Of a stretch of 41,776 bases of DNA, positions 12,773-15,533 are shown one piece after another. Numbering within the stretch: the first letter of the stretch is position 1; every line of letters starts with the position of its first letter. Below the pieces are notes generated by a model. The model did not search any database, was not told the DNA's origin, and saw only the letters and a program-made list of their open reading frames with translations. Made by a program: the position numbers and the translations under genes. This stretch comes from Candidatus Gastranaerophilales bacterium. Its GTDB lineage: Bacteria; Cyanobacteriota; Vampirovibrionia; Gastranaerophilales; Gastranaerophilaceae. Where the stretch lies: positions 1 through 41,776 of the forward strand of contig CANQLG010000015.1 of NCBI GenBank assembly GCA_947624645.1, in the 5' to 3' direction.

Positions 12773-13654
12773 ATGAGCATTAAGAGATTTTTTTATAAAA
12801 TATTAGAAACATACATTAAAAATAAATATAAAATGACATCTAATGAATTATTAAATTTTATGCTGCGTCGCGATGGAATTGAAGTATATAAAGATAATAT
12901 AGAATTTCTATTCTTAGGTTCATCTAACGGAGAATTAGGGGTAAATACCAACATGTTCGATGATAACAAAGCTTTTAATTTATGTATAAGTTCTCAAGAC
13001 TTATACTATTCTTGTGAGCTTTATAAAAAATATGTAAAAGAATTAAAAAACCTCAAAAATATTTTTGTAACGTTCTCAGTATTTTCATCCGGTTTCGAAC
13101 TACAAAAAACAAAGAACAAAAGACATATTCAATACTATAAAGAAGTATTTAATATTCCGTTTAAGTACGAAACCGAATGGGGGGGGGTAGAATTAAAAAA
13201 CGAGCTTAAAATAATTAAATATCTGACTAAAAAACATTATAACTTAAATAAAGGTTTTTCGGGATATACAGAAAAAATTCCAACGTTTGATATAAATGTT
13301 GCTATAAATGATATAAAATCTCACCTGAAAAATGCTTTTAGGGGAACTCATCAGGAAGAATACTTAAAAATAATGAACGATATAGCAAAAGAAAATAATC
13401 AAAACTTTTATGTTATTGTTTTACCCCGTTCACCTGAATACAGAAAGAGATTAAAAGAATATGCAATACAAGGTGGTTATGATTATGATAAAATATTCAA
13501 TCCGATGTACAAAATATCAGAACAATACAATATAAAAATAATTAATCATTTTGATGATGAAAATTTTACGGATAAAGATTTTGCAGATTTTGAACACTTA
13601 CTGCCCGCAGGTGCCGTTAAATTTACAAATATATTATTGAAAGAAATACAATGA
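12773..13654 (+). CDS. SGNH-hydrolase-like protein, poly-G phase-variable (in frame)
   Basis: A 293-aa protein with an SGNH/GDSL-like arrangement: 'FLFLGSSNGELGVNTNMF' supplies the nucleophile Ser block, 'FNLCISSQDLYYSCELYKKY' the following helix, 'FYVIVLPRSPEYRKRLKEYA' the central strand, and 'DFADFEHLLPAGAVKF' a D-x-x-H block near the C-terminus. Known relatives add or remove acyl groups on surface sugars; the substrate here is unknown. No signal peptide or membrane segment is seen. Nine G's at 13179-13187 encode Trp-Gly-Gly (TEWGGV) and keep the frame open. It overlaps the paralogue by ATGA, so the two are coupled. Confidence 0.75.
   Translation: MSIKRFFYKILETYIKNKYKMTSNELLNFMLRRDGIEVYKDNIEFLFLGSSNGELGVNTNMFDDNKAFNLCISSQDLYYSCELYKKYVKELKNLKNIFVTFSVFSSGFELQKTKNKRHIQYYKEVFNIPFKYETEWGGVELKNELKIIKYLTKKHYNLNKGFSGYTEKIPTFDINVAINDIKSHLKNAFRGTHQEEYLKIMNDIAKENNQNFYVIVLPRSPEYRKRLKEYAIQGGYDYDKIFNPMYKISEQYNIKIINHFDDENFTDKDFADFEHLLPAGAVKFTNILLKEIQ
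13179..13187 (+). repeat. Poly-G tract (G9), in-frame state
   Basis: Nine consecutive G's in an AT-rich gene, within ACC-GAA-TGG-GGG-GGG-GTA. Tracts of this length slip during replication. Gain or loss of one G would truncate the protein after residue about 138. Confidence 0.85.
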
Positions 13655-14528
13655 AATTAAAAGAACTGACTAATAAAATTAAAGCGAAATTTATAAAAAA
13701 ACGATACGGAATAACTCCAAAAGAATTATATAATTATTTCATATTAAAAGACGGGATTGAAGTATATAAAGAACGAATAGAAATTCTTGTTTTAGGTTCA
13801 AGCCATGGTCAACTTGGAATAAACACAAATTTATTTGAAAATTTTAAAGCTTTTAATCTCTGCATAGGTTCTCAAGATTTATATTATTCCTGCGAACTTT
13901 ACAAAAAATATGTAAAAGAACTTAAAAATCTAAAAAATGTTTTATTGACATATAGTGTATTTTCATCAGGGTATGAACTTCAGAAAACAAAAAATATCAG
14001 GTATATCGATTATTACAAAGAAGTCTTTGGCATAGAACCAAAGTATAAAACCGAATGGGGGGGGTAAATCATGATAAGGATATTCAAATTATCAGTGAAC
14101 TTTCCAAAAAGAAATATTATCTGCCTAAAGGTTTTACCGGATACGAAGGAAAAGTTTCTACAATGGATGTAAATGTTGCAATACACGATATTAAATCTCA
14201 TTTAAAAAATGCCTTCAGGGATAATCATCAGGAAGAATATGTAAAAATTATGAATGATATAGCACAAGAAAACAATCAAAAACTATTTATTATCATTCCT
14301 CCGCATTCTCCTATATATAGAGAAAAATTAAAAGAATTTGCAATGCAATACGGCTTAGAGTATAATGACATTTTCAAACCCTTGTTTAATTTGGGAGAAA
14401 AATACGGTTTAAAAATTTTAAACTATTATGATAATCAAAATTTTACCAATGAAGATTTTGCTGATTATGAACATTTACTTCCGACAGGGGCAATCAAATT
14501 AACAACTATGTTATTAAAGGAGATATAA
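13651..14528 (+). pseudogene. Second SGNH-like paralogue, frameshifted at a poly-G tract (phase-off)
   Basis: A tandem copy of the preceding gene. The first 138 codons (to 14067) match it closely ('LVLGSSHGQLGINTNLFENF', 'SQDLYYSCELYKKYVKELKN'). A stop then falls just after the eight-G run at 14057-14064. The remainder continues in another frame from about 14065 to 14528, including 'MDVNVAIHDIKSHLKNAFRD' and 'DFADYEHLLPTGAIKLTTML'. One more G would restore TEW-G-G-VNHDKD and give an intact protein of about 292 aa with both SGNH blocks. Everything else is conserved, so this looks like a switchable OFF state and not decay, unless it is a sequencing error in the G run. Confidence 0.8.
14057..14064 (+). 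repeat. Poly-G tract (G8), out-of-frame state
   Basis: Eight G's at the position equivalent to the G9 tract of the upstream paralogue. TGG-GGG-GGG-TAA ends translation at once. A single added G restores the family reading. Confidence 0.85.
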
Positions 14529-15533
14529 GTGAACATCAAAGATTTTTATAAGGCTCTAAAATCAAAAATTAAAAGGTATAAAATTAGACCAAAGTCAGTA
14601 ACAATAGATATAAGTAACAGATGTAACGCTCAGTGTCCTTTTTGTTCAAGACAAATATCGGAAATTAATCGTAATGAATTAATGCCAAAAGAAATGTTTT
14701 ATGACATTATGGAGCAAATTTCAAAAATAAAAACAATAAAACAAATATGTTTTGCCGCATTTGGAGAGCCCTTATTACACCCTGATTTTGATGAATTTAC
14801 CGATTTTGTAATATCGAAAGGTTATAGACTTGCTTATCCGACAAATATGCAGCTTGCTGATAAACATTTCGATTTCTTGTTAAAAGCGACAAATATTATG
14901 TTTTCTATTGAAGGATACGATAAAGAAACATACGAAAAAAGCAGAGTAAATCTTAATTTTGAAAGAACTTTAAACAATATAAAGGAATTTGACAGATTAA
15001 TCAGAGAAAAACGAGCTCGCAAAGAAAAAACCCCAAATCGGGAAATTAACTGCCTGATAACTAAAGAATCTGATATTGAAAAGTATTTTAGCTTATGGGG
15101 CGAAGTAGCAGATATTATCAGAGTAGGTCCGATATTGCCTGTTTTAATCTATGATAATAAAGCTCAACTTCCTGTTTTAAAATACAATGAAAACGAAGAA
15201 AATATTACGTTTAAACTTGAAAAAAACGTTAAAAATATGTATTGTAATCAAATTTTTAATAACATAAATATAAGAGCTAACGGAGAATTGGCTTTATGCT
15301 GCAGTGACTATGATTTTAATACCGATTTCGGAACTTATAAAGATTTACAAAATTCTTTCCGTAACAATAAAAATTTTAATAAAATCAGAAAAGAATTTAA
15401 ATTACATCAACTTGAATACTGCAAAAATTGTCCGCAAAATTTTGAAATCGATTTAGATGAACTTTTTAAATTAAAACCCGAACTTACATCATTTCAGAAA
15501 GACCCTAAAGTAATTATATATTCAAACAGATAA
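14529..15533 (+). CDS. Radical SAM protein with SPASM-like C-terminus
   Basis: A 334-aa radical SAM enzyme starting at GTG, directly after the stop of the paralogue, with AAGGAG nearby. The [4Fe-4S]/SAM motif is 'RCNAQCPFC' (CxxxCxxC, residues about 32-40). 'CFAAFGEPLLHPDF' is the GGE-like SAM contact. The C-terminal part has a cysteine set for auxiliary clusters: 'MYCNQIF', 'GELALCCSDYDF' and 'LEYCKNC'. Such SPASM members modify peptides, lipids or sugars. Coupling to the two SGNH-like genes suggests one surface-modification pathway (inference). It ends before a terminator shared with tRNA-Ile. Confidence 0.9.
   Translation: MNIKDFYKALKSKIKRYKIRPKSVTIDISNRCNAQCPFCSRQISEINRNELMPKEMFYDIMEQISKIKTIKQICFAAFGEPLLHPDFDEFTDFVISKGYRLAYPTNMQLADKHFDFLLKATNIMFSIEGYDKETYEKSRVNLNFERTLNNIKEFDRLIREKRARKEKTPNREINCLITKESDIEKYFSLWGEVADIIRVGPILPVLIYDNKAQLPVLKYNENEENITFKLEKNVKNMYCNQIFNNINIRANGELALCCSDYDFNTDFGTYKDLQNSFRNNKNFNKIRKEFKLHQLEYCKNCPQNFEIDLDELFKLKPELTSFQKDPKVIIYSNR

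What the first reader, a model, noticed from the sequence alone, without database searches (positions are those of the whole stretch)
12773..14528. Tandem SGNH-like pair with matched poly-G tracts: a phase-variable switch, one ON and one OFF
Both paralogues have a G-run at the same codon position (13179-13187, nine G; 14057-14064, eight G) in otherwise AT-rich DNA. Nine keeps the frame; eight stops it at once. Adding one G restores a full paralogue with a conserved D-x-x-H block. Gene overlaps (ATGA, then TAA-GTG to a radical SAM gene) mean the switch could also alter expression of the downstream gene by polarity. Poly-G switching of surface genes is known in Campylobacter; I do not know of it for this gene type.
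Basis: partly seen in the sequence, partly recalled or inferred. Interest (0 to 1): 0.76.

Follow-up and report, generated by a model that had tools for sequence, protein, structure and literature searches.

The report
Poly-G on/off switches in gut Gastranaerophilales
Two neighbouring enzyme genes of an uncultured gut bacterium each carry a run of G's that probably switches them on or off by slipping in length, and they are two of about 52 such runs in this genome and of a family-wide repertoire of random surface switches for which I found no earlier report.

Summary
ORF A (12773-13654, G9) reads through its tract. Its tandem paralogue B (13651-14528, G8) is stopped right after its tract. Both tracts follow codon 135. 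The genome belongs to Candidatus Gastranaerophilales (non-photosynthetic Cyanobacteriota of guts).

The pair is not isolated. The 2.14-Mb genome has 52 runs of 8 or more G. In the fetched DNA the run lengths are bimodal (7:0, 8:5, 9:30, 10:12, 11:3), the G9/G10 pattern of Campylobacter. A sister-species orthologue has its tract after the same codon, and more distant paralogues have tracts elsewhere. Sequence beyond the tract stays under purifying selection in OFF copies, so these are not plain pseudogenes. Other tracts lie in AlgX-type and AT3 acyltransferases, glycosyltransferases, pilins and giant secreted proteins, and about 11 in a repeated promoter cassette. Tracts of 9 or more G occur in 126 of 146 genomes sampled from the family.

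A is an SGNH-fold enzyme (closest fold PatB), most likely acting on acyl groups of a surface glycan (inferred). Switching itself was not observed, because no reads were available. The mechanism is known (SSR slippage); lineage, scale and gene family appear new.

The parts
12773..13654 (+). SGNH-fold enzyme A, 293 aa, in frame through its G9 tract (ON); catalytic-type residues G49-S50-S51 and D272-x-x-H275 (numbered by inspection)
   Evidence: DUF1574 E 1.6e-6; PatB Z 12.0
13179..13187 (+). G9 tract after codon 135, between the Ser block and the DxxH block
13651..14067 (+). 5' part of SGNH paralogue B (138 aa), overlapping A by ATGA; ends at the TAA touching the G8 tract (OFF)
14057..14064 (+). 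G8 tract after codon 135 of B
14055..14528 (+). 3' part of SGNH paralogue B (DxxH block), open in another frame; PF07611 30.8 bits, above cut-off
14529..15533 (+). radical SAM/SPASM protein, GTG directly after the TAA of B; own AAGGAG ribosome-binding site. Co-directional neighbour, functional link inferred only
   Evidence: not found beside the homologues

Best explanation
This is a pair of tandem simple-sequence-repeat contingency genes: translational phase variation by slipped-strand mispairing in poly-G. The G-run lies in a loop insertion of an SGNH-fold enzyme, between the serine block and the Asp-His block. A length giving the right frame yields a whole enzyme. The other lengths cut off the Asp-His half and leave a dead N-terminal piece. 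A and B switch independently, so a population would hold up to four states; this assembly records A on, B off. The enzyme is most likely cytoplasmic (no signal peptide seen) and adds or removes an acyl group on a precursor of a surface glycan (inferred). The pair belongs to a genome-wide set of about 52 G/C tracts that would vary acyltransferases, glycosyltransferases, pilins, giant secreted proteins and promoters. Shown: anatomy, frames, selection, recurrence across species and family. Inferred: slippage, reversibility, substrate, and benefit (variation of the surface seen by phages or host).
For: Tract after codon 135 in A, B and the G053 orthologue; G004 has G11 at the corresponding place, in frame across the tract. 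Run lengths in 303 kb of own DNA: 5:62, 6:5, 7:0, 8:5, 9:30, 10:12, 11:3, 12:1, 13:1, while A/T runs decline smoothly; C. jejuni tracts are likewise mainly G9/G10 (PMC8355987). Beyond the tract, A against B: dN 0.26, dS 1.23; A against G053: dN 0.33, dS 1.24; B against G053, both OFF: dN 0.42, dS 1.16. Own C10 and G053 C32 paralogues each carry a G10 tract out of frame, beside a hexapeptide transferase gene. A homologue in another genus has an in-frame C10 at a different codon. AlgX-type SGNH genes carry C8-C10 at a corresponding place in G000, G048, G047, G052, G046, G041, G051 and G006, some open across the tract and some not. SGNH fold: PatB Z 12.0, rmsd 4.4, 170 aligned; TesA 11.6.
Against: No reads or second strain: mixed lengths in one population were not seen. 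Species are represented by single metagenome assemblies, and a consensus G8 or G9 can hide errors. The G004 orthologue has a second frame break upstream of its tract, so some copies may be decaying. The structure model is weak (mean pLDDT 56). The chemical role is inference from fold and neighbours. MutS is present above the family cut-off in 39 of 41 genomes of the genus, this one included, so the genus is not simply lacking that part of mismatch repair.
Confidence: 0.86

Rival explanations
1. B is an ordinary pseudogene, and its G8 is a fixed frameshift.
For: B is out of frame in this assembly. The G004 orthologue carries an additional frame break.
Against: The 3' half of B is open for about 153 codons, 59% identical to A, with dN/dS about 0.2. 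The frame break lies exactly in a tract shared with A and the sister species, and the genome has 52 such tracts with coding ones in both frame states.
Confidence: 0.05
2. Sequencing or assembly error in a homopolymer; both genes are intact.
For: Homopolymers are error-prone. Three of 52 tracts lie within 10 bases of a contig end, so assembly was troubled there.
Against: The tracts exist whatever their exact length: the excess at 9-10 and the absence of 7 are not an error pattern. Contig breaks at tracts are also what real length mixtures would give. Matching tracts recur in many other assemblies.
Confidence: 0.05
3. The tract is a site of transcriptional slippage or ribosomal frameshifting, so both products are made from one DNA length and nothing switches genetically.
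For: Polymerases can slip on long G runs (general knowledge). An ATG (14055) overlaps the B tract and could re-start the 3' half.
Against: Tracts also sit between promoter elements, where slippage on the transcript cannot explain them. Tract positions differ between paralogues, unlike a conserved recoding site; no search for a stimulatory element was made.
Confidence: 0.08

Closest known systems
Campylobacter / Helicobacter poly-G phase-variable genes (PMC8355987, PMC2823697)
   Same: G/C homopolymers of mainly 9-10 in AT-rich genomes; tens of loci; surface-modifying genes, promoters, and some tracts near the 3' end.
   Different: Different phylum (Cyanobacteriota), uncultured gut lineage; MutS1 present; repeated promoter cassette; AlgX-type and DUF1574-like SGNH genes among the targets.
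Phase-variable O-acetyltransferases, e.g. H. influenzae oafA (PMC9558356)
   Same: Acyl modification of a surface glycan switched at random; the genome here also has an AT3 acyltransferase with a G9 tract.
   Different: oafA is a membrane AT3 protein; A and B are small SGNH-fold proteins with no membrane domain seen, and their substrate is unknown.
Neisseria porA-type promoter tracts (own knowledge)
   Same: Poly-G between promoter elements, changing their spacing.
   Different: Here one near-identical cassette (Gn-TAAAAGTGGTATAAT) is repeated about 11 times in this genome and occurs in 14 of 41 genomes of the genus.

Membership tests
SSR contingency locus (translational phase variation) | Tract far longer than chance for the genome | tested here: met
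SSR contingency locus (translational phase variation) | Unit not a multiple of 3, inside the ORF, so length change truncates the protein | tested here: met
SSR contingency locus (translational phase variation) | Sequence beyond the tract still under selection in OFF copies | tested here: met
   dN/dS about 0.2-0.4 (synonymous sites near saturation)
SSR contingency locus (translational phase variation) | Tract lengths vary between related copies | tested here: met
   G8, G9, G9, G10, G10, G11 among homologues; C8-C10 in AlgX-type genes. Between species and paralogues only
SSR contingency locus (translational phase variation) | Mixed lengths in one population, reversible, high rate | not testable with these tools
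   no reads, no second strain
SGNH/GDSL superfamily | Ser in a block I motif (here GSS) and DxxH block V | tested here: met
   LGSSxG and DxxHL in the alignment
SGNH/GDSL superfamily | Block II Gly and block III Asn | tested here: inconclusive
   not assignable from the alignment
SGNH/GDSL superfamily | SGNH alpha/beta fold | tested here: met
   most of the top 50 are SGNH-fold enzymes (PatB, TesA, PAF-AH), Z 10-12; the model is weak
Pfam DUF1574 (PF07611) | Score above curated cut-off 29.1 | tested here: inconclusive
   A 28.1 bits, 3' part of B 30.8 bits; homologues from other genera have no hit

The most novel reading that the evidence does not exclude
Gastranaerophilaceae, gut Cyanobacteriota not known as pathogens, carry a family-wide poly-G phasome (about 50 to 130 tracts in the richest genomes) that randomises surface glycans, pili, secreted giants and lipoproteins, partly through a duplicated poly-G promoter cassette, and that has repeatedly created tracts at new positions in SGNH acyl-modifying genes.
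Probability: 0.72. Interest if true: 0.78.

Novelty: new member of a known kind. Interest (0 to 1): 0.66.

Why it matters
[quoted passage not shown] Here is a family of uncultured gut bacteria, in a lineage for which I found no such report, with tract numbers in the range of the richest Campylobacter species. It makes that question testable with public gut reads, suggests an explanation for strain-level surface variation in this group, and warns that many 'frameshifted' genes in its assemblies may be switches.

Tried and rejected
Loss of mismatch repair as cause: MutS1 is found above cut-off in 39 of 41 genomes of the genus, including tract-rich and tract-free ones. MutL was not tested. Phage origin of the SGNH genes: no relatives in viral contigs, nor the promoter cassette, although the G004 copy lies near an integrase-like gene. 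Conserved operon with the radical SAM gene: no close relative beside the homologues. Homologues in named species by direct scan: none, so the lineage was named through PilB. Alignment A2 was too diverse for a viral-contig search. Sequence search of solved structures gave nothing credible. The gapped pattern counts one tract several times, and asked for exactly eight G; counts per genome are taken. Literature searches for phase variation in this lineage found none; preprints and most subscription papers are not in the library.

Full report
OBSERVATION. ORF A (12773-13654, 293 aa) is open across G9. ORF B starts inside the ATGA overlap at 13651 and stops at the TAA touching G8 (14065-14067), and its remainder is open in another frame to 14528. 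Each tract follows 135 codons. The window contains no other G or C run above five, and shuffles give 0.11 G8 words where three are seen.

WHERE IT IS. The genome has 2.14 Mb in 71 contigs, and 41 genomes of its genus are held, this one included. A scan with the window's PilB protein returned relatives named Candidatus Gastranaerophilales, up to 80% identical over the full length, that is, non-photosynthetic Cyanobacteriota of animal guts. The flanking T2SS/pilus cluster and tRNA-Ile are conserved in congeners. The SGNH pair is not general: matches were found in 4 of the 41 genomes at E 0.001, this one included.

NOT AN ISOLATED CASE. The genome has 52 tracts of at least eight G. In 303 kb fetched around them, G/C runs fall from 62 (length 5) to 5 (6) and 0 (7), then rise to 5 (8), 30 (9), 12 (10), 3 (11), 1 (12), 1 (13), while A/T runs fall smoothly. 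The regions were chosen for tracts, so the numbers at 8 and above are enriched by design; the gap at 7 is not. C. jejuni tracts are held mainly at G9 and G10 by opposite biases at G8 and G11 (PMC8355987). In the family, 126 of 146 sampled genomes and 37 of 41 genera have tracts of nine or more, some above 110 (G221 132, G088 128, G042 119). The 15 sampled genomes from other families of the order have few: at most ten overlapping G9 words each.

SELECTION AND RECURRENCE. B's 3' half is 59% identical to A. Beyond the tract dN is 0.26 and dS 1.23 for A against B; values against the G053 orthologue are similar. The G053 orthologue has G9 after codon 135 but is out of frame there; G004 has G11 and is in frame across the tract, with another break upstream. 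More distant paralogues (own C10, G053 C32) have G10 tracts at another position, both out of frame, next to a hexapeptide-repeat transferase. Of five further homologues in other genera of the family, four have no tract and one, G102, has an in-frame C10 near codon 53. So tracts have probably arisen more than once in this gene family.

WHAT THE OTHER TRACTS DO. Coding tracts include four tandem AlgX/DHHW SGNH genes, one in frame and three not, with tracts at a corresponding place in seven other species; an AT3 acyltransferase; GT6 and GT10 glycosyltransferases; a GT2; pilins; and very large secreted proteins with the tract just before the signal peptide. About 11 tracts lie in a near-identical cassette, Gn-TAAAARWNNTATAAT, preceded in most by TTGC-type hexamers and followed by secreted, membrane or lipoprotein-like ORFs. 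The cassette occurs in 14 of 41 genomes of the genus and the reversed control in none. This resembles promoter-spacing switches.

THE ENZYME. Pfam DUF1574 matches A just below and the 3' part of B just above its cut-off. A model from window sequences alone is weak (mean pLDDT 56) but VIA-align places most top matches in SGNH enzymes: PatB O-acetyltransferase Z 12.0 (rmsd 4.4, 170 aligned), TesA 11.6. The tract falls in the low-confidence stretch 103-192, a likely loop insertion that could bear a variable Gly run. Truncation there removes D272/H275. A role in acylation or deacylation of a surface glycan precursor is inferred from fold and from the transferase beside the paralogues.

POLARITY. 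The radical SAM gene begins directly after B but has its own AAGGAG, so an effect of the switch on it is possible and unproven.

LIMITS. No reads, no second strain, single assemblies. The mechanism rests on anatomy and comparative evidence. No report of phase variation in this lineage was found in the held library. The mechanism is a known kind; the lineage, scale and gene family appear new.

Noticed in passing
L024, L026, L027, L028, L031, L038, L052; 14 of 41 genomes of the genus: Near-identical poly-G promoter cassette (Gn-TAAAAGTGGTATAAT) repeated before secreted, lipoprotein-like and kelch-like ORFs; looks like a duplicated transcription switch.
   Followed up: partly
L039:8932-15743: Four tandem AlgX/DHHW SGNH paralogues with poly-C at a corresponding codon, one in frame and three out of frame; tracts at the same place in other species.
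   Followed up: yes
L032 (contig C63): GT6 (ABO-type) glycosyltransferase with an out-of-frame G10 and a GT10 fucosyltransferase with C13 near its 3' end: possible switching of host-like glycans.
   Followed up: partly
L038, L047, L048, L049: Pilin-like genes with G/C tracts, three of them with poly-C 5 to 10 codons after the start, before the GFTLAEVLITLV segment.
   Followed up: partly
L029, L030, L040, L042, L044, L052, L056: Large secreted proteins (several over 1,200 aa within the fetched DNA) with the tract just upstream of the signal peptide.
   Followed up: partly
L054:4974-15229 (contig C13): Four polysaccharide-type genes (GT2, radical SAM, ATP-grasp, TupA-like) with tracts near their 3' ends, like the C-terminal switching of Helicobacter canadensis (PMC2823697).
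   Followed up: no
contigs C13 end, C30 end, C63 start: Three contigs end within 10 bases of a poly-G tract; consistent with length mixtures breaking the assembly.
   Followed up: no
genus and family counts: Tract-rich and tract-free species occur in the same genus although MutS1 is present in both; cause unknown.
   Followed up: partly
L033:2839-5259: The G004 SGNH homologue lies beside a tyrosine-integrase-like gene, hinting at mobility.
   Followed up: no
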